This document shows positions 38,501 to 49,981 of a stretch of 64,000 bases of DNA, one piece after another. Every line of letters begins with the position of its first letter. Position 1 is the stretch's first letter. The stretch is from Jiangella asiatica. Lineage in GTDB: Bacteria; Actinomycetota; Actinomycetes; Jiangellales; Jiangellaceae. The notes beneath the pieces were generated by a model, which was not told the origin of the DNA, did no database searches, and saw only the letters and a program-made list of their open reading frames with translations. Both the position numbers and the translations under genes were made by a program. The stretch covers positions 186,001 to 250,000 of the forward strand of contig NZ_SMKZ01000003.1 of the NCBI RefSeq assembly GCF_004349065.1. Direction: 5' to 3'.

Positions 38501-38586
38501 GTGAAAAATCTAAGGTCTGATGCTGGATTGCGCATGGTTTGACCCGTTGTGCCGTCAATAGCCTGGCACATCACAGGAGGTCAACG

Positions 38587-39699
38587 ATGACGCAGAGAGT
38601 GCGGATGGCCATCGCCGGGCTCGGCTTCGGATCGGAGTTCATCCCGATCTACCAAGCCCATCCGGACGCCGAGCTCGTGGCCGTGTGCCAACGGACCGAG
38701 AGCGTGTTGCGGGAGGTCGCCGACCGCTTCGGCGTCCCCGGCCGGTTCACCGGTTTCGCCGCGATGCTGGAGGACCCGTACATCGACGCGATACACATCA
38801 ACACTCCGATCCCGAATCACGCGGAGCACACGATCGCCGCGCTTCGCGCGGGAAAGCACGTGGCGTGCACCGTGCCGATGGCCACCACTCTCGACGAGTG
38901 CCGGGCGATCGTCGCGGCCGTGCGGGAATCCGGCAAGAACTACATGATGATGGAGACGGTCGTCTATTCCCGGGAGTTCTTGCACGTCAAGGATCTCGTG
39001 GAGAACGGCACGATCGGCCGCATCCAGTTCCTCCGCGGGGCGCACCACCAAGAGATGGCCGGGTGGCCCGGGTACTGGGAGGGTCTTCCCCCCATGCACT
39101 ACGCGACCCATGCGGTGAGCCCAGTCCTGAGTCTGGCCGGTGCGCTGGCGGACAGCGTCGTGTGCATCGGTTCCGGGCGGATCTCCGCGGAGCTCGCCAG
39201 CAGGTACGGGTCGCCGTTCGCGGTGGAGAGCGCCCTCGTGACCATGCGTGACTCGCCGGTCGGAGCCGAGATCGCCCGCTCGCTGTTCGAGACTGCGCGG
39301 GAGTACGTCGAGAGCTTCACCGTCTTCGGCGAACTGGCGAGCTTCGAGTGGGAACAGACCCAGGGCTCGGGTCACGTCCTGCACGTCGGCGAGACCCCGA
39401 AGACCATCGACGTACCCGACTTCGCCGACCGGTTGCCGCCGCAGATCGCGCCCTTCACGACGAGGGGCGTCTACGACGACGAGAACGAGCACCTCTCGTT
39501 CATCCAGGGCAGCGGCCACGGTGGGTCGCACCCACATCTGGCGCACGAGTTCGTTCGCAGCATCGTCGAGGGACGTGCGCCCGCGATCGACGAAATCACG
39601 GCGGCGAACTGGACGTCCGTCGGGATCTGCGCCCACGAGTCGGCCATGAAAGGGGGAGCCCGCGTGGCGCTCCCCGACTACGAGGAGATGGCGAGCTGA
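38587..39699 (+). CDS. Gfo/Idh/MocA-family oxidoreductase
   Basis: 370 residues: Rossmann NAD(P) domain about 5-125 (IAGLGFGSEFIP, INTPIPNHAEHTIAALRAGKHVACTVPM), then an alpha/beta domain. The usual catalytic E-K-P at the end of the first domain reads C-T-V-P-M, so the EKP lysine is missing. HYATHAVSP supplies the His motif. Members oxidise or reduce sugars and inositols. ATG 38587 has AGGAGG six bases upstream. First gene after the XylR regulator; the LIV transporter follows after 123 bases with no gene. Confidence 0.88.
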   Translation: MTQRVRMAIAGLGFGSEFIPIYQAHPDAELVAVCQRTESVLREVADRFGVPGRFTGFAAMLEDPYIDAIHINTPIPNHAEHTIAALRAGKHVACTVPMATTLDECRAIVAAVRESGKNYMMMETVVYSREFLHVKDLVENGTIGRIQFLRGAHHQEMAGWPGYWEGLPPMHYATHAVSPVLSLAGALADSVVCIGSGRISAELASRYGSPFAVESALVTMRDSPVGAEIARSLFETAREYVESFTVFGELASFEWEQTQGSGHVLHVGETPKTIDVPDFADRLPPQIAPFTTRGVYDDENEHLSFIQGSGHGGSHPHLAHEFVRSIVEGRAPAIDEITAANWTSVGICAHESAMKGGARVALPDYEEMAS

Positions 39700-39822
39700 C
39701 GGCGACGGCGTCCGTCGTGACGCCGCGGGTCGCGCCTCACGCCGGCCGATCCTGACGGTGACCCATCGAAGAGCGATCGATGCGGCCGTACGGGGGCGTG
39801 CCCTGAGTAGCGGGAGGGATCG

Positions 39823-40905
39823 ATGGAGCCTGTCGGGATCGATCAGCACCGGCCGAGCACGACGACCGCGAGGAGCCGCCGGGTCGAGCCACGCCGGCTT
39901 CCGGTGCTGGTGGCCGCCGCGGCCGCCGTGGCCCTTGCCGTCTGGGTGACGTTTCTCGCCGACGGCACTCCGGCCGGCCCGGCGACGGAGAACCCGGGCA
40001 AGTTCGTGGTCACGGCGCTCGACGCGGTCACCTTCGCCGGTTTGCTGTTCGTCGCGGCATCGGGGTTCACGCTGATCTTCGGGCTGATGCGCACGGTGAA
40101 CATGGCGCACGGTTCGCTGTTCCTGCTGGCGGCCTACATCGCCATCCGGGTGCAGGAAGCCATGGTCGGCAGGTCGCGCAACATAGATCCGGCCGACGTC
40201 GCAGTGCTGGACTGGCTGGTGCCTCTGCTGGTCGGTGCCGGTGTCGCGGCGGCGCTGGGCCTGGTGATCCAGCAGGTCTTCCTTCAGTGGAACGAGGGCC
40301 AGGAACTGCGCCAAGCGCTCATGACGCTCGCCATCACGGTCGTGCTGGCTGATCAGATGCTGCGTGAGTTCGGCGGGCTCGCCCAACGGATGGTTTGGCC
40401 CGGTGCGGTCACGCACTTCCTCTCCGTCATGGGCGAGCGCTACGCGGTCACGCGCCTGTTCATGCTCGGGGTGGCCGTCCTGGTCGGCGTGCTCCTCTGG
40501 CTCTGGCTGACCAGGACGAGCATGGGCATGGTCATCAGGGCCGGTGTCGACGACCGCCAGATGGTGCGTGCTCTCGGCATCAACATCAGGCTGGTGTTCG
40601 CGATCACCTTCTTCGTCGGCTCGTTCCTCGCCGGGGTGGGTGGCGTGCTCGGCGCGTCGTTCGCCGGTGCGGCGCCGGGAACGGACGGCAGCTGGCTGTT
40701 GAACGCGCTCGTCGTCGTCATCATCGGCGGGCTGGGATCGCTCAAGGGCGCCGCGGCCGGCTCGCTGCTGTACGGCGCGGTCGTAGCGTTCTCACCCGCG
40801 TATCTGCCCAGCCAGTACTCCTACTACGCGATCATCATGACCTTCGCCCTGCTGGCGCTGGTCCTCGCCGTCCGGCCGTACGGACTGTTCGGGAGGCCGG
40901 CATGA
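39823..40905 (+). CDS. LIV-type (HAAT) ABC permease, LivH type
   Basis: 360 residues. A 50-residue cytoplasmic N-terminus, then eight or nine membrane segments. The LivH signature GLMRTVNMAHGSLFLLAAYI and the C-terminal VVIIGGLGSLKGAAAGSLLYG are both clear. ATG 39823 follows GGGAGG. Although this family is best known for branched-chain amino acids, members also import amides, urea, aromatics and sugar acids. Sugar enzymes at both ends of this operon favour a non-amino-acid ligand. Confidence 0.9.
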   Translation: MEPVGIDQHRPSTTTARSRRVEPRRLPVLVAAAAAVALAVWVTFLADGTPAGPATENPGKFVVTALDAVTFAGLLFVAASGFTLIFGLMRTVNMAHGSLFLLAAYIAIRVQEAMVGRSRNIDPADVAVLDWLVPLLVGAGVAAALGLVIQQVFLQWNEGQELRQALMTLAITVVLADQMLREFGGLAQRMVWPGAVTHFLSVMGERYAVTRLFMLGVAVLVGVLLWLWLTRTSMGMVIRAGVDDRQMVRALGINIRLVFAITFFVGSFLAGVGGVLGASFAGAAPGTDGSWLLNALVVVIIGGLGSLKGAAAGSLLYGAVVAFSPAYLPSQYSYYAIIMTFALLALVLAVRPYGLFGRPA

Positions 40906-41972
40906 CGGTACGCGGTCAGCTCACCCGGAGGAACCTCGTCCTCGCCGCCGTGGTCGTCGTGCTGCTGGCGCTGCCGAGCCTGGCGACGGCGTTCTTCGTC
41001 AACTTCGTGATGACGCAGACGCTGATCCTGGGGCTGGCGGCGGCGACGATCGTGTTCCTCGCGAAGTACGCGGGCATGACCTCGCTGGCGCAGTTCCTCC
41101 TGTTCGGGGTCGCCGGCTTCATGTTCGGCAACGCCGCCCTGGAGGCCGGCGCACGTGGCCTCAACCTGGGCTGGGACGCGTGGGCGGCCGTGGGGTTCGC
41201 GATCGTCGTGACCACCGTGGTCGCGTTCGTCCTCGGCGCCATCGCGAGCCGCACCACCGGGATCTACTTCCTGATGCTCACGCTGGTCTACGCGGTGATC
41301 GGCTACTTCGTGTTCGCCCAGATCGTCGAGATATCCGGCCCCGGCGGCATCACGAGCATCCAGCGGCCGGAGCTCCTCGGCCCGCCGGTCCGGCTGTACT
41401 ACGCGGGCCTCCTGCTCTCGGTCCTGGCCTACCTCGGCTTCCGGTCGCTCGGGCGGACCGCGTTCGGGCTGGCACTGCAGGGGGTCCGTGACGACCCGAT
41501 CCGGATGGCGTCGCTCGGGTTCAACGTCGCGCTGCACCGGACCCTGGCGTTCACGCTGGCCGGGTTCGTGGTCGGGCTGGGCGGTCTGCTCAACGTGTGG
41601 TGGAACGGCCAGATCGATCCGGCGTCGATCTCGATCGGGCCCACCCTGATCCTGCTGATCATCGCCGTGATCGGTGGCATCTCGTCGTTCGAGGGCGCGT
41701 GGCTGGGCGCGTTCGTCTACGTGCTGGTGTTCACCTACCTGCGCGATCTTCCGCTGATCGACCGGATCGGCATCACCGAGGCCCGCTTCAACACCGTGAT
41801 CGGCGTCATCGTGCTGGCGATCATGGTGCTCTCCCCGGAGGGACTCACGGGGATCATCCATCGACTGCGTGGCCGCCTGGAGCGGCCGGCCGCCGCGGCT
41901 GCGGACACCTCGACCGGCGGGCCGCTACCCCTGCGCAAGACCGAGAAGGAATTCGGAGGAACACGACCATGA
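40902..41972 (+). CDS. LIV-type (HAAT) ABC permease, LivM type
   Basis: 356 residues, about ten membrane segments. It has the LivM features GMTSLAQFLLFGVAGF and RTTGIYFLMLTL near the front, the coupling loop GVRDDPIRMASLGFNV, and LLIIAVIGGISSFEGAWLGA near the end. ATG 40902 overlaps the LivH-type stop by four bases. Partner of the 39823-40905 permease. Confidence 0.9.
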   Translation: MTVRGQLTRRNLVLAAVVVVLLALPSLATAFFVNFVMTQTLILGLAAATIVFLAKYAGMTSLAQFLLFGVAGFMFGNAALEAGARGLNLGWDAWAAVGFAIVVTTVVAFVLGAIASRTTGIYFLMLTLVYAVIGYFVFAQIVEISGPGGITSIQRPELLGPPVRLYYAGLLLSVLAYLGFRSLGRTAFGLALQGVRDDPIRMASLGFNVALHRTLAFTLAGFVVGLGGLLNVWWNGQIDPASISIGPTLILLIIAVIGGISSFEGAWLGAFVYVLVFTYLRDLPLIDRIGITEARFNTVIGVIVLAIMVLSPEGLTGIIHRLRGRLERPAAAAADTSTGGPLPLRKTEKEFGGTRP

Positions 41973-43453
41973 GCAGACTCAGGCGACGAACGGCCCTGGC
42001 ACTCTGCGCGGTCACCGGCCTGGCGCTGCTGGCGGCCGGTTGTGGCGGCGGTGACGAGGACGACTCGGCCGGCCTCCCGGCGGACCAGGAGACGGCCGCC
42101 GGCGAGGTGAGCGCCCCGCCGCCCGGCGACGGCGACGGGGTCCGGTTGGGCATCCTGGGCCAGTGCGAGGGCCCGTTCGGCGGCTTCCACGAAGATGTCG
42201 TCGCCGGTACGACACTCGCCCTGGCGCGGTTCGCCGGCGCGACCCCCAACTCCTCCACCAGCGCGCTCGAGGGCTTCACCGGTGCGGAGGTCGCCGGGAC
42301 CCCGATCGAGCTCGTCGGCATCGGCTGCGGCGACGACACCGCGGACCGCATCCTGCAGGAGGTGCGCCGCCTGGTCGAGCAACTCGGCGCCAACGTGATC
42401 ATCGGCCCGCTCTCCGGTGACGAGGGCATCGCCATCGCCGAGTACGCGAAGGCGAACCCCGAACTGACGGTGTTCGCGGGGATCTCCGGGTCGCAGGAAC
42501 AGACACTGCAGGTCCAGGCGCCGAACTACTTCCGTTTCTACGGCGACGGCGCGATCTGGAGCGCCGGCCTCGGCGACCTGCTGCACAACCAGGAGGGATG
42601 GGAGACGGTTGCGATCATCGCCGACGACTACAGCTTCGGCCACACGTCCGCGGCGGGTTTCGTCGCCGACTTCTGCGCCGTCGGCGGCGAGGTCACGCAC
42701 CGTGTGTTCCCGCCGCTGGGCACCACGGACTACTCGTCGTACATCGCTCAGCTGCCGAACCCGGACGAGGTCGACGGCTACTTCTGGGCGGTCGGCGGGA
42801 CGGGGACGCAGGCCGCGCTGGAGGCGTTCGTCAACGGCAAGGGCGACCTCACCGGTGACCAGCACGCGGGCAACCTGTTCTTCAACCCCGACCTGGCGCA
42901 GGCCCTCGGCACCGACATCGCCGGCGCCTACGTCGGCGGCTTCGCGACACTGCCCGGCGACGTCCGGACACCGAAGATCGAGGAGTACCTGGCGGCGGCC
43001 GACGAGACCTGGGAGACCATCCCCGGCTCCTTGAGCGGCAACGAGCCCGCCGCACCGTCGGTGGCCGCCGCCTTCGGGTTCTTCTACGGCTATTACACGG
43101 CCGGTGTCGCGCTGGCCGAGGCGCTGGAGGCGGTCGGTGGTGACATCTCCGACCTGGACGCGTTCCACGCCGCGGTCAGCGGTCTCACGCTGGACCTCCC
43201 GTACGGCGACATCAGCCTGGACGAGAACCGCAGCGGCATCGTCGACGTCGGCCTCTCGCGCCTGGCGCTCGACGAGTCCGGCGAGGTCGTGCAGGAGACG
43301 GTGGCCATCGTGCCCGGGGTGGACCAGACCTTCGGCGGCACGTTCAGCCCCGACACGCCGTCGCCGGGGCGGGATTTCCCGGCGTGTGAAGAGCGTGACC
43401 TGCCGTGGGTGGGCAACGCCATCCCCGTCGTCGACGGCGTCCCGCAGAGCTAG
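41969..43453 (+). CDS. LIV-type solute-binding lipoprotein (type I, Peripl_BP_6)
   Basis: 494 residues. Sec lipoprotein signal ending L-A-A-G-C, acidic linker, then a type-I periplasmic binding protein fold. Conserved parts include VIIGPLSGDEGIAIAEYA and NYFRFYGDGA. ATG 41969 overlaps the LivM-type stop by four bases and has GGAGG upstream. The longer-than-usual insert and four cysteines in the mature part differ from leucine-binding LivJ/K, agreeing with another ligand. Confidence 0.88.
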   Translation: MSRLRRRTALALCAVTGLALLAAGCGGGDEDDSAGLPADQETAAGEVSAPPPGDGDGVRLGILGQCEGPFGGFHEDVVAGTTLALARFAGATPNSSTSALEGFTGAEVAGTPIELVGIGCGDDTADRILQEVRRLVEQLGANVIIGPLSGDEGIAIAEYAKANPELTVFAGISGSQEQTLQVQAPNYFRFYGDGAIWSAGLGDLLHNQEGWETVAIIADDYSFGHTSAAGFVADFCAVGGEVTHRVFPPLGTTDYSSYIAQLPNPDEVDGYFWAVGGTGTQAALEAFVNGKGDLTGDQHAGNLFFNPDLAQALGTDIAGAYVGGFATLPGDVRTPKIEEYLAAADETWETIPGSLSGNEPAAPSVAAAFGFFYGYYTAGVALAEALEAVGGDISDLDAFHAAVSGLTLDLPYGDISLDENRSGIVDVGLSRLALDESGEVVQETVAIVPGVDQTFGGTFSPDTPSPGRDFPACEERDLPWVGNAIPVVDGVPQS

Positions 43454-43462
43454 GGGCCCGTC

Positions 43463-44251
43463 ATGGCGCACACCAGTGCCGCGCAGTCCGAGCCGTCCGG
43501 TTCGGCCCCGGTCATCGAGGTCCGCATGGTCACGGTGGCGTTCGGCGGCTTGCTGGCCTTGCGTGGTGTCGACCTCGACATCATGCCGGGCGAGCGGCTG
43601 GCGGTCATCGGACCGAACGGGGCTGGCAAGTCGACCCTGTTCAACGTGATCGCGGGAGACATCGCGCCGACGGCCGGCAAGGTGGCCGTCAAAGGGCAGG
43701 ACTGCACGTACCGGCCGTCGAGGCACCGGCCGCGCCTCGGTGTGGCGCGGACCTACCAGAAGGCCCGCACCTTCGACGGCCTCACGGTCCGCGACAACAT
43801 CTACCTGGCACTCGCCGGCCACGCGCGGCGGCATCGCGCGCTGTGGCGGTCGTCGGTCGACGCACGGATGCGATCGACGGCGGCGAACGTGGCCGAGACG
43901 GTCTGGCTCGCCGGCCAGCTCGACCACCCGGCGGGACAGCTGGCACACGGTCAGAAGCGCCAGCTCGAGCTCGGGATGGCGATCGCCACCGGGCCGGACG
44001 TGATGTTGCTCGACGAACCGGCCTCCGGCCTGTCTCGCGGCGAGCGGGAACGACTGATCGAGGTGCTCGAGTCCTTGGCGCCGGAGGTCACGCTCCTTCT
44101 CATCGAGCACGACATGGACGTGGCGTTCCGGATCGCGCAACGGGTGGTCGTGATGGCCGACGGCGAGACGGTGACGGCCGGTTCGCCGGCGCAGGTCCAG
44201 AAGGACACGAACGTCCACCGGATCTACCTCGGCACGGAGGCGACGGCATGA
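43463..44251 (+). CDS. LIV-type ABC ATPase, LivG type
   Basis: 262 residues: Walker A GPNGAGKST near 53, LivG-typical ARTYQKARTFDGLTVRDNI after the Q-loop, Walker B VMLLDEPASGLS, switch IEHD. The signature loop reads L-A-H-G-Q-K-R-Q-L-E-L-G, the usual LivG form of LSGGQ. ATG 43463, nine bases after the binding-protein stop. Confidence 0.9.
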   Translation: MAHTSAAQSEPSGSAPVIEVRMVTVAFGGLLALRGVDLDIMPGERLAVIGPNGAGKSTLFNVIAGDIAPTAGKVAVKGQDCTYRPSRHRPRLGVARTYQKARTFDGLTVRDNIYLALAGHARRHRALWRSSVDARMRSTAANVAETVWLAGQLDHPAGQLAHGQKRQLELGMAIATGPDVMLLDEPASGLSRGERERLIEVLESLAPEVTLLLIEHDMDVAFRIAQRVVVMADGETVTAGSPAQVQKDTNVHRIYLGTEATA

Positions 44252-44988
44252 CCGACGATCAGGCGCTGCTCGAGGTCCGCGATTTACGCGCCGGCTACGG
44301 AGTCTCCCGCGTCCTTGACGGGGTGAGCTTCCGGGTGGCGCACGAGGCGGTCGCGATCGTCGGCCGCAACGGCATGGGCAAGTCGACACTCTGCGACACC
44401 CTCGTCGGACTCCTGCGGGCCTCAGGCGGGGAGGTCGTGCTGCGCGGCGAGCGCATCGACGGCCTCGCCCCGGAGAGGGTCGCCAACTCCGGCATCGCCT
44501 ACGTGCCACAGGGCCGGCGGCTGTTCCCGTCGCTGACCGTCGACGAGCACCTGGCCATGCTCGCCAGGCGGACGCGCGGCAAGCGGTGGACCCCCGACGC
44601 CGTCTACGAGCTGTTTCCGCGGCTGGCCGAGCGCAAGAAGCACGGCGGAGCCGATCTCTCCGGCGGTGAGCAGCAGATGCTCGCCGTCGGACGGGCGTTG
44701 CTGTTGAACGCCCACGTGATCGTGATGGACGAGCCGTCCGAGGGGCTGGCTCCGACCATCGTCGACGTGCTCGTCGATGCCGTGCACCACCTGGTCGACC
44801 AGGGCGTGGCGGTGCTCGTCGTCGAGCAGAACCTGCGCGCCGCGGTCCGGATGGCGCACCGGCAGTTGGTCATGGTGTCCGGCCGTCTCGAGGCCGAGTT
44901 CGCCGGCGACGAGCTGCTGGCACGGCCGGACCTGCAACACCGGTACCTCGGTGTGGGCGGACATGAGCTGGAAGGGGAGTACCGATGA
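44248..44988 (+). CDS. LIV-type ABC ATPase, LivF type
   Basis: 246 residues: Walker A GRNGMGKST, signature LSGGEQQMLAVGRAL, Walker B VIVMDEPSEGLAP, switch VEQN. The last two are LivF hallmarks. ATG 44248 overlaps the LivG-type stop, and the epimerase start overlaps its own stop (both ATGA). This chain of four-base overlaps shows that transporter and epimerase are one operon. Confidence 0.9.
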   Translation: MTDDQALLEVRDLRAGYGVSRVLDGVSFRVAHEAVAIVGRNGMGKSTLCDTLVGLLRASGGEVVLRGERIDGLAPERVANSGIAYVPQGRRLFPSLTVDEHLAMLARRTRGKRWTPDAVYELFPRLAERKKHGGADLSGGEQQMLAVGRALLLNAHVIVMDEPSEGLAPTIVDVLVDAVHHLVDQGVAVLVVEQNLRAAVRMAHRQLVMVSGRLEAEFAGDELLARPDLQHRYLGVGGHELEGEYR

Positions 44989-45860
44989 GGCCGACGAGGA
45001 CGTTGGGGGTCAACACCTGGGTGTGGACCTCGCCACTGACCGACCAGCGGCTGGCCGAGCTGGCGCCGCGCATCCGGGAGTGGGGCTTCGACGTGATCGA
45101 GCTCCCGGTGGAGGACCTGGGTGACTGGGACCCCGAGCACGCGAGGAAGCTGCTCGACACTCTCGGGCTGTCTGCGACCATCGTGCTGGCCATGGGGCCC
45201 GGCCGCGAGCTGGTGGCCGCCGACCACGCGACCATCGCCGCCACTCGCGACTACCTGCGACGGGTGGTCGACGTGGCGGCCACGGTCTCCTCGCCGGTGG
45301 TGGCCGGCCCGGCCTACACGTCGGTCGGACGTACGTGGCGGATCGGCGGCTCGGAGCGGCCCGCCTGTTACGAGCAGCTGCGCGATGGCCTCGCACCGGT
45401 CGTGGAGCACGCGGCGGCGGCCGGCGTCACGGTGGCGGTCGAGCCTCTCAACCGGTACGAGACGAGCTTGATCAACACGGTGGACCAGGTTCTCGAGGCG
45501 CTGGACGGCCTGCCGGCCGACGGCGTCGGCGTGGCCCTGGACATTTACCACATGAACATCGAGGAACGGAGCATCCCGGAGGCCATCCGGCGGGCCGCGG
45601 ACCGGATCGCACACGTGCAGGTGTGTGCGAACGACCGGGGCGCGCCGGGCGCGGACCACCTCGACTGGCCGGGCATCGTCGCCGCGCTGGACGAAGCGAG
45701 GTACCGGGGCCCGCTCGTGATCGAGTCCTTCACCGGGGAGAACGCGACGATCGCCACGGCCGCGTCGATCTGGCGGCCGCTGGCGAAGAGCCAGGACGCG
45801 ATCGCCGTCGACGGGCTCTCCTTTCTCACCGGTGTCGTGCGGGGAGGAGGTACTCCCTGA
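44985..45860 (+). CDS. Sugar phosphate isomerase/epimerase (AP-endonuclease-2-type TIM barrel)
   Basis: 291 residues. Metal-binding residues of ketose 3-epimerases and related enzymes are visible: Glu in VAVEPLNRYETS, Asp-x-x-His in ALDIYHMN, His in VQVCANDRGAPG..HLD, and Glu in PLVIESF. Members isomerise or epimerise ketoses and inositol intermediates. It is coupled to the transporter by ATGA overlap at 44985, with GGGGAG upstream. With the Gfo/Idh oxidoreductase it suggests that the imported compound is a sugar or cyclitol. Confidence 0.88.
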   Translation: MRPTRTLGVNTWVWTSPLTDQRLAELAPRIREWGFDVIELPVEDLGDWDPEHARKLLDTLGLSATIVLAMGPGRELVAADHATIAATRDYLRRVVDVAATVSSPVVAGPAYTSVGRTWRIGGSERPACYEQLRDGLAPVVEHAAAAGVTVAVEPLNRYETSLINTVDQVLEALDGLPADGVGVALDIYHMNIEERSIPEAIRRAADRIAHVQVCANDRGAPGADHLDWPGIVAALDEARYRGPLVIESFTGENATIATAASIWRPLAKSQDAIAVDGLSFLTGVVRGGGTP

Positions 45861-45910: not shown

Positions 45911-48900
45911 ATGCGACGACGTTATCGGTACATCCCGTTCATGGTGCTGACGGCACTGCTGTTATCGGTTCTCCCGGGTCTGGCAGTCAGCTCCGCACAA
46001 ACCTCTGATTCCGCGTACGACGTGCTGTTCTTCCACAAGACGACAGGCTTCCGGCACGATTCGATCCCGGCTGCCATCGCCGCGGTCGAGGAACTGGGCG
46101 CGGCGAACGACTTCGCGGTGACCGAGACGCAGGACGCGTCGGTGTTCACCGACGAAGGACTGGCGCAGTACGAGGCCATCGTCTTCTTCACCGACGGTGA
46201 GAACACGCTCGACGCTGAGCAGCGGCATGCGTTCGAGCGCTACATCCACCGCGGTGGAGGTTTCGTCGGACTGCACTCGACGTCGAACATGGACAAGACG
46301 GACTGGCCCTGGTGGTCCGATCTCATGGGTGGTGCGTTCTTCCTGAGCCATCCCTCCGGCGCCGACCAGTTCCAAGACGCCACCGTGCGGGTCGAGGAGC
46401 CCGAGCATCCGTCCACGGCCGGCCTGCCGGCCGAATGGGTCCGCGAGGACGAGTGGTACAACTTCACCGCCAACCCGCGCGAGAAGGTGCACGTCCTGGC
46501 CACGCTGGACGAGTCGACCTACGACCCGGGCCCGGACGCCATGGGGGAGGACCACCCGATCGCCTGGTGCTCCGAGTTCGACGGTGGCCGCACCTGGTAC
46601 ACGGCGCTGGGCCACAGCTCCGAACACTACGCGGAACCGCTGCTGCGCGAGCACCTCCTCGGGGGCATCCAGTGGGCGGCGGGCGTGGCCGAGGGTGAGT
46701 GCGGTGAGCCTCGCGAGGGCATCCCCACCGAGGCGTCGTTCGAGAAGGTGACCCTGGACGACAACACCGCCAACCCGATGGAGCTGGCCGTCGCTCCTGA
46801 CGGGCGGGTGTTCTACGTCGAGCTGGGCGGCGCGGTGAAGATCTACGATCCCGACACCGGCGCCGTGACGGTCGCCGCGCAGATCCCGGTTCACCGCGGC
46901 AACGAGAACGGCTTGCTGGGTATCGCCCTCGACCCCGACTTCGAGACGAACCAGTGGCTGTACCTGTTCTACAGTGCGCCGTCGCCGCAGGTGCAGCACG
47001 TCTCCAGGTTCACCGTCGACGGTGACGCGCTGGACCTGGCGTCCGAGGAGCTCCTGCTGGAGATCCCGCACCAGCGTGAGGTGTGCTGTCACTCCGCGGG
47101 CTCTATGACGTTCGGTCCCGACGGCAACCTGTTCATCTCCACCGGTGACGACAGCGCCCACTTCGCGTCGCAGGGCTATGCCCCCATCGACGGGCGCATC
47201 TACGACGAGTACCAGAGCGAGGACGCCAAGCGCTCCTACGACGCGCGGCGCACGTCCGGCAACACCAACGACCTGCGCGGCAAGATCATCAGGATCACGC
47301 CGGAGGACGACGGCACGTACTCGATCCCGGAAGGGAACCTGTTCCCTCCGGGCACCGAAGGCGCCCGGCCCGAGATCTACACGATGGGTCACCGCAACCC
47401 GTTCCGGATCGCCGTGGACGACGAGACCGGCTGGATCTACGCGGGCGAGGTCGGCCCCGACGCCGGCAGCGACAACCCCGACCGCGGCCCTCGCGGCTAC
47501 GACGAATGGAACCAGATTCGCGAGGCCGGGAACTACGGCTGGCCGTTCTGCATCGCCGACAACCAGCCGTACCGGCAATGGGACTTCGCCACCAGCACCC
47601 CGGGCGAGTTCTACGACTGCGAGAACGGCCCGGTCAACGACTCGCCGTTCAACACCGGACTGGACGTCCTCCCGCCGGCGAAGGACGCGTTCATCTGGTA
47701 CCCGTACGGCGAGTCGCCACAGTTCCCGGAGCTGCCCACGGGCGGCGGCCGCACGGCGTACGCCGGGGACGTCTACCACTACGACCCGGACCTGCTGGGC
47801 GACGGCCAGTTCCCGGAGTACTACGACGACGCGGTGTTCGTCATGGAATGGTCGCGCAAGTGGATCGGCACGCTGCGACTGGACGAGAACGGCGACTACG
47901 AGAGCTTCGAGCAGTTCATGCCGAGCACGCTGTTCCGCAGCCCGCACGACATGGAGTTCGGCCCGGACGGGGCGATGTACCTCATCGAATGGGGCATGGA
48001 CTTCAACTACGCAGGTGAGAACGTCAATCCGGATTCCGGTCTCTACAAGATCAACTACACCAAGGGTGCGCGGACCCCGATGGCGGAGGCGAGCTCGGAC
48101 GTCGACTCCGGACGCACTCCGCTCGAGGTCACGTTCTCCAGTGCGGGAAGCCACGACCCGGACGGGGACGAGCTGACGTTCGCGTGGGACTTCGGCGACG
48201 GAACCACGACCGAGGAGCCGAACCCCACGCACACCTACACCGAGCCCGGCGAGTACACCGTCCGTTTGACGGTCAGCGACCCGTCCGGGCGCTCCAGCAG
48301 CTCCAACCTCACGATCACCGCCGGGAACACCCGCCCCGAGGTGACGATCGAGCTGCCGGCCAATGGCCAAGTCTTCGACTGGGGCGACGAGATCCCGTAC
48401 CGGGTCTCGGTCCTGGATGCCGAGGACGGGTCGGGGGACGCGATCGACTGCGAACGGGTGACCGTCCAGCAGGGGCTCTACCACGACGAGGGCGGTAACG
48501 CGCACGTGCACCCGGGTCAGGTGCAGAACGGCTGCGAAGGGGTGCTCGCCACTCAACCAGACGCGGAACACGGCGAGGCCGCGGACATCGCGCTGACGGT
48601 GACGGCCAGCTACACCGACGACGGCGGCGAGGCGGGGGCTCCGCCGCTGACCGGCGGGGTGACGCACTTCTTGCAGCAGAAGCGCAAGGAGACCGAGCAC
48701 TTCGCCGAGTCGTCGGACGTCGTCGTCGGGGTAGCCGCCGACGAGGAGACCGGTGGTGGCGACGCGATCACGGGGCAAGGCGGCGCCTGGGCGTCGTACG
48801 AGCCCTACAACCTCGCCGGCATCGGCGAGATGACGCTGCGGGTGGCGGCGGCCGATGACACCACGGTCGAGGTCCGGCGGGATGCGCCCGACGGCGAGCT

Positions 48901-49981
48901 GCTCGCCACGGCTCAGATCGAGGGTAGCGTCGAGATCGAGCGTGCAGCCGGTCCGGACGGCTTCCACAGCGCCGTCCGGCTGGGCGGCACGAGCCAGCTG
49001 GAGAAGGTGGAGCTCCCCGCGGGCATCGTCAGCGGCGTCGAGGACTTCACCATCTCGGCGTGGGTGAACTGGTCCGGAGGCCAGACGTGGGCGCGCGTCT
49101 TGGACTTCGGCTCCGGCACCGGCACCTACATGTTCCTGACGCCGAGCGCTGGCGGGACGAACCGACTCAGGTATGCGATCACGACCGGCGCCGGCGAGCA
49201 GGTGATCAACGGGTCGCAGCAGCTGCCCGCCGACGGCTGGCATCACGTCGCGGTCACCCTGGCCGGAACGACGGGCACGTTGTACCTCGACGGTGAACCC
49301 ATCGGGACCAACGCCGCCATGACGTTGACCCCGTCGGACCTGGGCGTGACCGAGCAGAACTGGATCGGCGACTCCCAGTGGTCCGCGGACCCCCTGCTCG
49401 ACGGCGCCGTCGACGATGTCAACCTCTTCGACCGGGCCTTGGCACAGGGTGAGATCCAGTCGCTGATGCAGACTCCTGGCGGCGACGTGGGCGGCGGGAC
49501 CGTCGCCTGGTACCAGTTCGACGAAAACGGCGGTGCCGCGGCCGTGGACTCCTCCGGGCAGGGCAACGACGCGACCATCGTCCTCGCCGCGGACGCCGCG
49601 GCCTGGCAGGACGTGACGTTCGAGCTGAGCCAGACCGAGGGGACGTTCCCGCTGCACCTCGTCTTCCCGGACGGTCCGGTGCGGGTGAACTGGATGGAGC
49701 TCGGTGATTCGGACGTGGACCCGGGCGTCTGTACCGACCCGGACCAGCGGGCGACCGTCGTCGTCGGCGACGTCGACAGCGGCGTGCCGAACCGCGACGC
49801 CGGCGACGGGTGCACGGTCAACGACCTCATCCTCGACGACCAGCCGTGGGACGGTCACGGCGCGTTCATCAGGCACGTGCAGCAGGTGACGGCTCAGCTC
49901 GTGGCCGACAGCGTCCTGACCTCACGGGAAGGGCGTGACGTCAACCTGGCGGCCAGCCGCAGCGACATCGGCCGCGGCTGA
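45911..49981 (+). CDS. Secreted multidomain ThuA / PQQ-type sugar dehydrogenase / PKD / CBM6 with inserted LamG
   Basis: 1356 residues. Signal peptide to about residue 30. ThuA (trehalose-utilisation, class-I-amidotransferase-like) fold about 35-256. Glucose/sorbosone dehydrogenase beta-propeller about 273-716, with YTMGHRNPFRI and FGPDGNLFISTGD. PKD domain about 723-805 (FAWDFGDGTTTEEPNPTHTY). CBM6 first half about 926-1005, then a LamG/concanavalin-like domain about 1010-1206, then the missing CBM6 second half about 1228-1263 (DVTFELSQTEGTFPLHLVF). A cysteine-containing C-terminal module follows about 1270-1356. It would oxidise sugars outside the cell while bound to polysaccharide. ATG 45911 is 50 bases after the epimerase stop, and a strong hairpin follows at 50006. 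Confidence 0.86.
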   Translation: MRRRYRYIPFMVLTALLLSVLPGLAVSSAQTSDSAYDVLFFHKTTGFRHDSIPAAIAAVEELGAANDFAVTETQDASVFTDEGLAQYEAIVFFTDGENTLDAEQRHAFERYIHRGGGFVGLHSTSNMDKTDWPWWSDLMGGAFFLSHPSGADQFQDATVRVEEPEHPSTAGLPAEWVREDEWYNFTANPREKVHVLATLDESTYDPGPDAMGEDHPIAWCSEFDGGRTWYTALGHSSEHYAEPLLREHLLGGIQWAAGVAEGECGEPREGIPTEASFEKVTLDDNTANPMELAVAPDGRVFYVELGGAVKIYDPDTGAVTVAAQIPVHRGNENGLLGIALDPDFETNQWLYLFYSAPSPQVQHVSRFTVDGDALDLASEELLLEIPHQREVCCHSAGSMTFGPDGNLFISTGDDSAHFASQGYAPIDGRIYDEYQSEDAKRSYDARRTSGNTNDLRGKIIRITPEDDGTYSIPEGNLFPPGTEGARPEIYTMGHRNPFRIAVDDETGWIYAGEVGPDAGSDNPDRGPRGYDEWNQIREAGNYGWPFCIADNQPYRQWDFATSTPGEFYDCENGPVNDSPFNTGLDVLPPAKDAFIWYPYGESPQFPELPTGGGRTAYAGDVYHYDPDLLGDGQFPEYYDDAVFVMEWSRKWIGTLRLDENGDYESFEQFMPSTLFRSPHDMEFGPDGAMYLIEWGMDFNYAGENVNPDSGLYKINYTKGARTPMAEASSDVDSGRTPLEVTFSSAGSHDPDGDELTFAWDFGDGTTTEEPNPTHTYTEPGEYTVRLTVSDPSGRSSSSNLTITAGNTRPEVTIELPANGQVFDWGDEIPYRVSVLDAEDGSGDAIDCERVTVQQGLYHDEGGNAHVHPGQVQNGCEGVLATQPDAEHGEAADIALTVTASYTDDGGEAGAPPLTGGVTHFLQQKRKETEHFAESSDVVVGVAADEETGGGDAITGQGGAWASYEPYNLAGIGEMTLRVAAADDTTVEVRRDAPDGELLATAQIEGSVEIERAAGPDGFHSAVRLGGTSQLEKVELPAGIVSGVEDFTISAWVNWSGGQTWARVLDFGSGTGTYMFLTPSAGGTNRLRYAITTGAGEQVINGSQQLPADGWHHVAVTLAGTTGTLYLDGEPIGTNAAMTLTPSDLGVTEQNWIGDSQWSADPLLDGAVDDVNLFDRALAQGEIQSLMQTPGGDVGGGTVAWYQFDENGGAAAVDSSGQGNDATIVLAADAAAWQDVTFELSQTEGTFPLHLVFPDGPVRVNWMELGDSDVDPGVCTDPDQRATVVVGDVDSGVPNRDAGDGCTVNDLILDDQPWDGHGAFIRHVQQVTAQLVADSVLTSREGRDVNLAASRSDIGRG

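What the first reader, a model, noticed from the sequence alone, without database searches (positions are those of the whole stretch)
45911..49981. LamG domain nested inside a CBM6 in a ThuA-sugar dehydrogenase protein
The CBM6 front half (about residues 926-1005) and its end (about 1228-1263) are separated by a LamG-like domain, so the two carbohydrate-binding folds are nested rather than tandem. The protein also joins ThuA and a PQQ-type propeller, an extracellular oxidase design with unusual targeting.
Basis: partly seen in the sequence, partly recalled or inferred. Interest (0 to 1): 0.52.

Follow-up and report, generated by a model that had tools for sequence, protein, structure and literature searches.

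The report
Rearranged LamG domain nested in hosts
A lectin-like domain whose first strand has moved to its end sits inside another sugar-binding domain of a secreted sugar enzyme, and the same rearranged domain is also inserted in several unrelated proteins of related soil bacteria, so it looks like a reusable plug-in part.

Summary
The 1356-residue, probably secreted protein has ThuA, a glucose/sorbosone-dehydrogenase propeller, PKD, then a CBM6 split by a LamG: joining the halves raises the CBM6 score from 36.5 to 49.5 bits and completes the profile. The 11 near-full-length orthologues found (Jiangella, Streptomyces, Glycomyces, Nocardioides and others) keep it.

The LamG is circularly permuted against its nearest bacterial relatives: the motif that opens a canonical LamG_3 comes after the body. 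A profile built only from canonical domains puts it there in 55 of 55 distinct bodies of 165 bits or more. And the same permuted domain is inserted elsewhere: in GH127 catalytic domains, the last loop of ricin-type trefoils, and a GH39-like enzyme (there possibly at a domain border). Uninterrupted relatives locate the cut. One of the 55 lies between domains.

The strand order itself is not new: pentraxins, PAPP-A and 4DQA have it. What seems new is one permuted LamG lineage recurring as an insert in unrelated hosts. Likely role: an added glycan-binding module; ligand unknown. New variant of a known kind.

The parts
45911..49981 (+). CDS, ThuA-GSDH-PKD-CBM6[LamG] protein, 1356 aa
   Evidence: open frame; Pfam
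45911..45997 (+). probable signal peptide (residues 1-29)
   Evidence: basic-hydrophobic-AQT pattern read by eye; no predictor was run
46022..46678 (+). ThuA domain (residues 38-256)
   Evidence: PF06283, 257 bits
46772..47557 (+). GSDH (glucose/sorbosone dehydrogenase) propeller, Pfam stretch residues 288-549; the propeller probably runs on to ~720
   Evidence: PF07995, 142 bits; alignment to 2ISM and 1C9U/8RE0
48074..48316 (+). PKD domain (residues 722-802)
   Evidence: PF18911, 81 bits
48692..48925 (+). CBM6 front part (residues 928-1005)
   Evidence: PF03422 profile 2-80/125
48938..49582 (+). nested, circularly permuted LamG module (residues 1010-1224)
   Evidence: models
48959..49465 (+). 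LamG body (residues 1017-1185)
   Evidence: PF13385 residues 1033-1183; coordinates
49499..49582 (+). canonical LamG N-terminal motif placed after the body (residues 1197-1224, TVAWYQFDENGGAAAVDSSGQGNDATIV)
   Evidence: weak swapped match to 4QVS; strand 190-196 of model
49601..49702 (+). CBM6 back part (residues 1231-1264)
49724..49978 (+). C-terminal ~85-residue tail recurring in other proteins of this genome
   Evidence: 8 further places; no Pfam match at E<=10
44985..45860 (+). context: xylose-isomerase-like TIM barrel gene just upstream, same strand
   Evidence: PF01261

Best explanation
The protein is a probably secreted ThuA-GSDH sugar enzyme whose CBM6 carries a whole LamG domain in one loop. 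Shown by sequence: the LamG is a circular permutation of the bacterial LamG_3 order. The strand motif that opens a canonical domain follows its end after a short linker, and the new ends lie in the loop where strand 1 used to meet strand 2, so the domain can sit in a loop of another domain. Shown: the same permuted domain is nested in GH127 catalytic domains and in the last loop of ricin-type trefoils, and is inserted in a GH39-like enzyme whose chain is continuous in relatives (whether inside one domain there, or at a border, is not shown). Likely but not proved: one permutation gave a lineage of LamG domains that was then passed between different secreted glycan enzymes. Inferred: in the CBM6 host it replaces the loop tip that carries a key aromatic of cleft A in known members, and it acts as an added glycan-binding platform. 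The nearest relative with a known ligand, AbnA domain 4, binds arabinan. The ligand here is unknown.
For: Nesting in CBM6. Permutation: motif and body order; a motif profile from 10 canonical domains scores best just after the body in 55 of 55 distinct bodies of 165 bits or more; matches to canonical 4QVS come in swapped order, though its motif part is only 1-3 bits; in the structural look AbnA domain 4 (5HON) aligns with model 1-180 only, while the best rows of PAPP-A, PTX3 and 4DQA run on to 216-220, through the moved strand. Distinct lineage: 64 matches of 223 bits or more reaching profile position 215 or beyond of 222, the next at 181 bits; one clade of permuted rows is not rejected, p-AU 0.457. 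Other hosts: PF07944 split in two stretches in 7 of 7 GH127 hosts given to Pfam, against one stretch in control L133; one stretch 1-376 after joining L070; insert between chain residues 129 and 153 of 5OPJ. GH39-like: both flanks of L084 align 4-10 residues apart in 3 of 3 uninterrupted relatives tested. Ricin: uninterrupted relatives L181 and L182 read QW(D/T)DNGTADHLWRLT where L121 reads QWTDGTPTS[LamG]...TADRFWTLT. AbnA domain 4 binding: PMC9110388, passages.
Against: The body-then-strand order exists in pentraxins, PAPP-A and 4DQA, so descent from a pentraxin-order ancestor rather than a fresh permutation cannot be excluded. One of 55 distinct copies (L127) sits between GH43 and ricin domains, so the lineage is not insert-only. 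The tree places 8 canonical long-branch rows inside the permuted group (support 80/85); neither one clade of all permuted rows nor one clade of GH127 rows is rejected, so number and direction of moves are open. The copies were gathered with permuted queries, so they are no random sample. AF2 confidence is moderate (pLDDT 71 and 73); model residues 197-223, after the moved strand, are under 50, and the CBM6 front is poorly modelled. Joining the ricin halves brought no gain in score. No ligand data.
Confidence: 0.78

Rival explanations
1. Plain nesting of an ordinary LamG: a canonical LamG dropped into a CBM6 loop, nothing else unusual.
For: CBM6 is split and Pfam sees a normal Laminin_G_3 body.
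Against: The opening motif follows the body in 55 of 55 distinct bodies by a profile that never saw permuted domains, and the 4QVS match is split in swapped order, the motif part weakly.
Confidence: 0.06
2. Two LamGs in tandem worn down from both ends: a first copy that lost its opening strand and a second reduced to that strand only. As a fold this equals a permuted domain; it would be the route by which the permutation arose.
For: A short linker, glycine-rich in CBM6, GH39-like, GH43 and some GH127 hosts, joins body and motif; canonical LamGs in pairs are seen in these genomes (e.g. L020, L134, L136).
Against: I noticed no intermediate with more of the second copy, though none was specially sought; the motif is kept in all 55 distinct bodies, which argues for use within one fold rather than decay.
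Confidence: 0.1
3. The nested domain is a pentraxin-order LamG by descent and was never permuted; the canonical bacterial order would be the derived one.
For: Pentraxins, PAPP-A and 4DQA share the order.
Against: The profile scores 150 bits against canonical 4QVS but 20-36 bits against pentraxin-order chains; the nearest non-permuted bacterial body seen is canonical (L133, 164.9 bits).
Confidence: 0.15
4. Tandem modules: residues 926-1005 fold alone and 1228-1263 belong to the LamG or the tail.
For: The joint AF2 model has a weak CBM6 front.
Against: Joined halves complete the CBM6 profile and match solved CBM6s over both halves; LamG is modelled as a sandwich without 1231-1264; uninterrupted paralogues show the same end.
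Confidence: 0.04

Closest known systems
Laminin_G_3 / concanavalin A-like LamG domains of bacteria (4QVS, canonical order)
   Same: Body matches at 103.6 bits to PF13385; the A2 profile gives 150 bits to 4QVS
   Different: Opening strand motif comes after the body; domain nested in another domain
AbnA domain 4 (5HON; Geobacillus GH43 arabinanase)
   Same: Fold match Z 17.2, 167 residues, rmsd 2.5; profile E 1.2e-11; binds arabinopentaose and arabinan (PMC9110388, passages)
   Different: Canonical strand order and placed at the end of the protein, not nested; ligand residues not compared
Pentraxins, the PAPP-A LG domain and 4DQA
   Same: Same strand order: aligned through the moved strand, Z 15-18
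   Different: Distant in sequence (20-36 bits); no pentraxin family among Pfam matches; in 4DQA the matched range is the C-terminal part of the chain
Sialidases with a lectin domain inserted in the propeller (e.g. Vibrio cholerae; recalled, not tested)
   Same: A concanavalin-like domain nested in an enzyme
   Different: Single host family (recalled); here one permuted lineage in several unrelated hosts
CBM6 (1W9S BH0236; 1O8P/1NAE putative xylanase)
   Same: Joined halves match over most of the domain
   Different: The segment GGWQ/GSFD of these solved CBM6s is missing and the LamG stands in its place

Membership tests
CBM6 (PF03422) | sequence profile over the whole domain | tested here: met
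   49.5 bits, profile 2-123/125 when joined; 36.5 bits, 2-79 front only
CBM6 (PF03422) | cleft A aromatic in the loop where the insert lies (Trp92 of CtGH11-CBM6; residue from PMC10284105 passages) | tested here: not met
   Joined alignment has a gap opposite GGWQ of 1W9S and GSFD of 1O8P; placing Trp92 there is my inference from its 28-residue spacing to Asn120. By eye, 3 of 8 frames of the same genome keep a Trp there (L012, L014, L017) and 5 do not; HhGH5-CBM6 lacks it too. So this weakens a cleft A role, not family membership
Laminin_G_3 (PF13385) | sequence profile of the body | tested here: met
   103.6 bits against cut-off 27.6
Laminin_G_3, canonical bacterial order | opening strand motif before the body | tested here: not met
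   Motif after the body in 55 of 55 distinct bodies, the window's included
Pentraxin family | strand order body then last strand | tested here: met
   Alignments run through the moved strand
Pentraxin family | pentraxin sequence profile | tested here: not met
   No pentraxin family among Pfam matches at E<=1
GSDH / PQQ sugar dehydrogenase | sequence profile | tested here: met
   PF07995 142 bits; the NCBIfam model TIGR03606 is below its cut-off, 97 against 435 bits
GSDH / PQQ sugar dehydrogenase | PQQ and catalytic residues | tested here: inconclusive
   The His of CCHSAG and the Arg-Asn of GHRNP align with soluble glucose dehydrogenase; their roles are recalled; the second half of the propeller did not align
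AbnA domain 4-like CBM | arabinan binding | not testable with these tools
   needs a binding assay
GH127 host | one catalytic domain interrupted by the insert | tested here: met
   Two stretches in 7 of 7 given to Pfam; one stretch when L070 is joined
GH39-like host | insert inside one domain rather than at a border | tested here: inconclusive
   Chain is continuous in 3 of 3 relatives, but Pfam names no catalytic family there, so the place in the fold is unknown; the GH39 label is recalled

The most novel reading that the evidence does not exclude
A circularly permuted LamG lineage is adapted to live inside other proteins: its ends were brought together once, and it has since moved as a unit into at least three unrelated folds (CBM6, GH127 barrel, ricin trefoil) and a GH39-like enzyme, a natural plug-in lectin module. 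In two host families (GH127, GH39-like) relatives carry a canonical LamG at a chain end instead.
Probability: 0.5. Interest if true: 0.72.

Novelty: new variant of a known kind. Interest (0 to 1): 0.56.

Why it matters
Domain insertion is usually seen as a rare event in one family (recalled). Here one permuted domain recurs as an insert in unrelated hosts, with uninterrupted relatives at hand for each. That makes it directly testable whether permutation prepares a domain for insertion, and it offers natural, tolerated insertion sites and a ready module for protein engineering. It also corrects annotation: the Pfam scan sees only part of the CBM6 and an ordinary LamG.

Tried and rejected
Plain tandem modules and plain canonical LamG were tested and dropped. 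The idea that the strand order itself is new was dropped when pentraxins, PAPP-A and 4DQA aligned through the moved strand. The idea that the lineage occurs only as an insert was dropped because of L127, where it lies between GH43 and ricin domains. GH127 as source of the lineage: the tree puts GH127 rows at the base, but one clade of GH127 rows is not rejected (p-AU 0.461), so I do not claim it. Joining the ricin halves gave no gain in Pfam score and phmmer did not reach the end; the ricin case rests on uninterrupted relatives L181 and L182. An alignment of the whole nested stretch to uninterrupted paralogues failed to bridge the insert; only the back-half scores and shuffles were used. The structural listings were filled by the LamG; no CBM6 row appeared, which tests nothing.

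Papers: ten searches, five of which listed nothing. No listed title or abstract start describes a LamG nested in CBM6, GH127 or ricin, or a permuted LamG. This covers only the open library, not subscription journals; I saw search listings and passages of PMC9110388 and PMC10284105, no whole paper.

Limits: only 7 or 8 candidates a genome were scored, so counts are lower bounds; the searches with alignment A2 drew on Actinomycetota only. Bodies came from loci fetched with permuted queries. The cut of 165 bits lies just above the best canonical body (L133, 164.9); the lowest permuted body has 179.0 (labels mended). Host labels of the 55 distinct permuted bodies (GH127 25, CBM6 22, ricin 6, GH39-like 1, GH43-ricin 1) come from text patterns in the 120 residues downstream; seven GH127 copies and four ricin copies (L085, L120, L121, L124) also went through Pfam. 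L052 and L065 are cut at contig ends before their CBM6 front. In one search rows over 92% identical were dropped (95 to 84). In one search only 10 of 24 canonical motifs passed the text cut and built the profile.
Full report
What is there. The frame at 45911-49981 (+) encodes 1356 residues. Pfam finds ThuA 38-256, GSDH 288-549, PKD 722-802, the first two thirds of a CBM6 (928-1004, profile 2-80 of 125) and a Laminin_G_3 body 1033-1183. The start looks like a signal peptide by eye; no predictor was run. The gene follows, on the same strand, genes for a GFO/IDH/MocA oxidoreductase, an ABC importer and a xylose-isomerase-like TIM barrel; an amidohydrolase lies on the other strand.

Nesting in CBM6. 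The front half alone scores 36.5 bits against CBM_6, the back half alone nothing, the joined halves 49.5 bits over profile 2-123 of 125. The joined sequence aligns to solved CBM6 chains 1W9S, 1O8P and 1NAE (E about 1e-7), with a gap where they carry GGWQ or GSFD. Paralogues in the same genome have a CBM6 without interruption. Against four uninterrupted relatives (L015, L011, L013, L034) the back half is matched or beaten by 0, 1, 6 and 18 of 1000 shuffles. A scan of genome contigs gave 16 loci; 11 of them (L022-L032) are near-full-length orthologues from Jiangella, Phytoactinopolyspora, Haloactinopolyspora, Streptomyces, Glycomyces and Nocardioides, and all 11 keep the order front, LamG, back. 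One more, from outside the class but inside the phylum, does too (G461).

The insert replaces a binding loop tip. In CtGH11-CBM6 the cleft A ligand stacks on Trp92 and Tyr34 and is hydrogen-bonded by Asn120 (PMC10284105, passages). Trp92 lies 28 residues before Asn120, and the Phe of GSFD lies 28 before the Asn of VNVDW in 1O8P; so, by inference, the LamG stands where that aromatic would be. Of 8 frames of the same genome printed, 3 keep a Trp there (L012, L014, L017) and 5 do not (L011, L013, both of L015, L016), by eye; so the loss need not be due to the insert.

The LamG is permuted. Canonical bacterial LamG_3 domains open with a strand motif of the type LLLHYGFDESGGNIVRDSSGHGFHG (L056), then the body. 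Here the motif (TVAWYQFDENGGAAAVDSSGQGNDATIV, residues 1197-1224) follows the body. In 4QVS, a canonical solved domain, phmmer places query residues 15-179 at chain 49-220 and 190-216 at chain 5-32, in swapped order, the motif part at only 1 bit (3 bits with the profile). Among 95 distinct bodies from fetched loci, 56 have the motif after the body, 24 before, 15 undecided; 55 of the 56 score 165 bits or more, and the other (L020, 41.6 bits) has a second body behind it. As an independent test, a motif profile from 10 canonical domains only was run on the proteins of the 55: its best hit lies just after the body in 55 of 55 (6 to 43 bits). Body and motif are joined by a short linker, glycine-rich (VGGGN, TGGGN and the like) in CBM6, GH39-like, GH43 and some GH127 hosts, less so in ricin and other GH127 hosts.

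Structure. The joint model of residues 915-1270 has pLDDT 71, pTM 0.63; the CBM6 front is weak. The LamG-alone model (residues 1008-1230) has pLDDT 73, pTM 0.79, with the moved motif as strand 190-196 and low confidence after it. In the structural second look, AbnA domain 4, canonical in order, aligns with model 1-180 (Z 17.2, 167 residues, rmsd 2.5), while the best rows of PAPP-A, PTX3 and 4DQA run on to 216-220, through the moved strand (Z 17-18). So the order is that of pentraxins. By sequence the domain is far closer to canonical 4QVS (150 bits) than to pentraxin-order chains (20-36 bits), which favours a separate permutation in this lineage.

A distinct lineage in several hosts. A profile of 13 permuted domains (A2) searched in 393 genomes of the class gave 64 matches of 223 bits or more in 32 genomes (counted by me from the listing), reaching profile position 215 or beyond of 222; the next best has 181 bits and ends at 185, before the motif. 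In 396 genomes of the phylum, 5 had a match at E<=1e-50, four of them (the window's own among them) already in the class search. I fetched all 15 of the 64 that lie outside the family of the window: 9 GH127, 5 ricin and one (L127) between a GH43 and a ricin domain, that is, not nested. Among the 55 distinct bodies the host labels are GH127 25, CBM6 22, ricin 6, GH39-like 1, GH43-ricin 1 (by text pattern).

The other hosts. GH127: PF07944 is split in two stretches in 7 of 7 tested, the second starting at profile 96-98; L070 joined is one stretch 1-376; in 5OPJ the site lies between residues 129 and 153. Control L133, a GH127 with a canonical LamG at its end, has one unbroken stretch 1-375. GH39-like (my label, recalled; Pfam names no catalytic family there): front and back flanks of L084 map 4 to 10 residues apart in L057, L121 (second frame) and L141, scores far above shuffles. 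So the chain is interrupted, but whether inside a domain or at a border is not shown. These relatives carry a canonical LamG before the enzyme (L121 second frame). Ricin: L181 and L182 are uninterrupted relatives that end QWDDNGTADHLWRLTAR and QWTDNGTADHLWRLTSR; L121 reads QWTDGTPTS, LamG, then TADRFWTLTP. Joining the ricin halves did not raise the Pfam score.

Tree. On bodies only (84 rows, 172 columns) the permuted rows group together except that 8 long-branch canonical rows fall among them; one clade of all 45 permuted rows is not rejected (p-AU 0.457). GH127 rows lie at the base but one GH127 clade is not rejected either (0.461). Host labels, canonical counted as one, need 6 changes, the least possible being 5. 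So few moves between hosts; their direction is open.

Likely working. The enzyme part: ThuA plus a GSDH propeller; the His of CCHSAG and the Arg-Asn of GHRNP align with soluble glucose dehydrogenase, roles recalled. The LamG as added glycan binder is inferred: AbnA domain 4 holds arabinopentaose in its concave cleft, and calorimetry was used to confirm arabinan binding (PMC9110388, passages), and GH127 and GH43 hosts act on arabinose-containing glycans (recalled). Ligand residues were not compared.

Verdict. Observation confirmed, interpretation partly supported and extended: a new variant of a known kind, worth a structure and binding tests. None of the titles and abstract starts listed by ten searches of the open library describes it.

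Noticed in passing
49724-49978: C-terminal tail of ~85 residues (TVVVGDVDSGVPN...FIRHVQQVT...) without a Pfam match, repeated at 8 other places in this genome; L130 has a C-terminal match to FIMAH PF22888 at 25.6 bits, and whether the two are related was not tested.
   Followed up: partly
L002-L010 and G000:C11:4446-5993: The genome holds at least 10 further relatives of this ThuA/GSDH protein at 320 bits or more, several with an uninterrupted CBM6 and added modules, some reading by eye like DUF1080-type ends.
   Followed up: partly
L029, L031, L032, L154: Orthologues add different modules after the CBM6 end: Ig-like pairs, a ricin-type trefoil, cadherin-like repeats (read by eye).
   Followed up: no
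L133:1168-3882: GH127 enzyme with a canonical LamG at its end, 164.9 bits, the nearest non-permuted body seen; possible relative of the source of the permuted lineage.
   Followed up: partly
L134, L136, L137, L138: Proteins of ~1840-1970 residues with two canonical-looking LamGs whose bodies fall inside the permuted group of the tree on long branches: a reversal or a tree artefact.
   Followed up: no
38539-45860: Same-strand run of GFO/IDH/MocA oxidoreductase, branched-chain-type ABC importer and xylose-isomerase-like TIM barrel just before the gene, reminiscent of keto-sugar pathways (recalled).
   Followed up: no
L127:2899-5499: Permuted LamG between a GH43 and a ricin-type trefoil: the only one of 55 distinct copies labelled as not nested in a domain.
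   Followed up: yes
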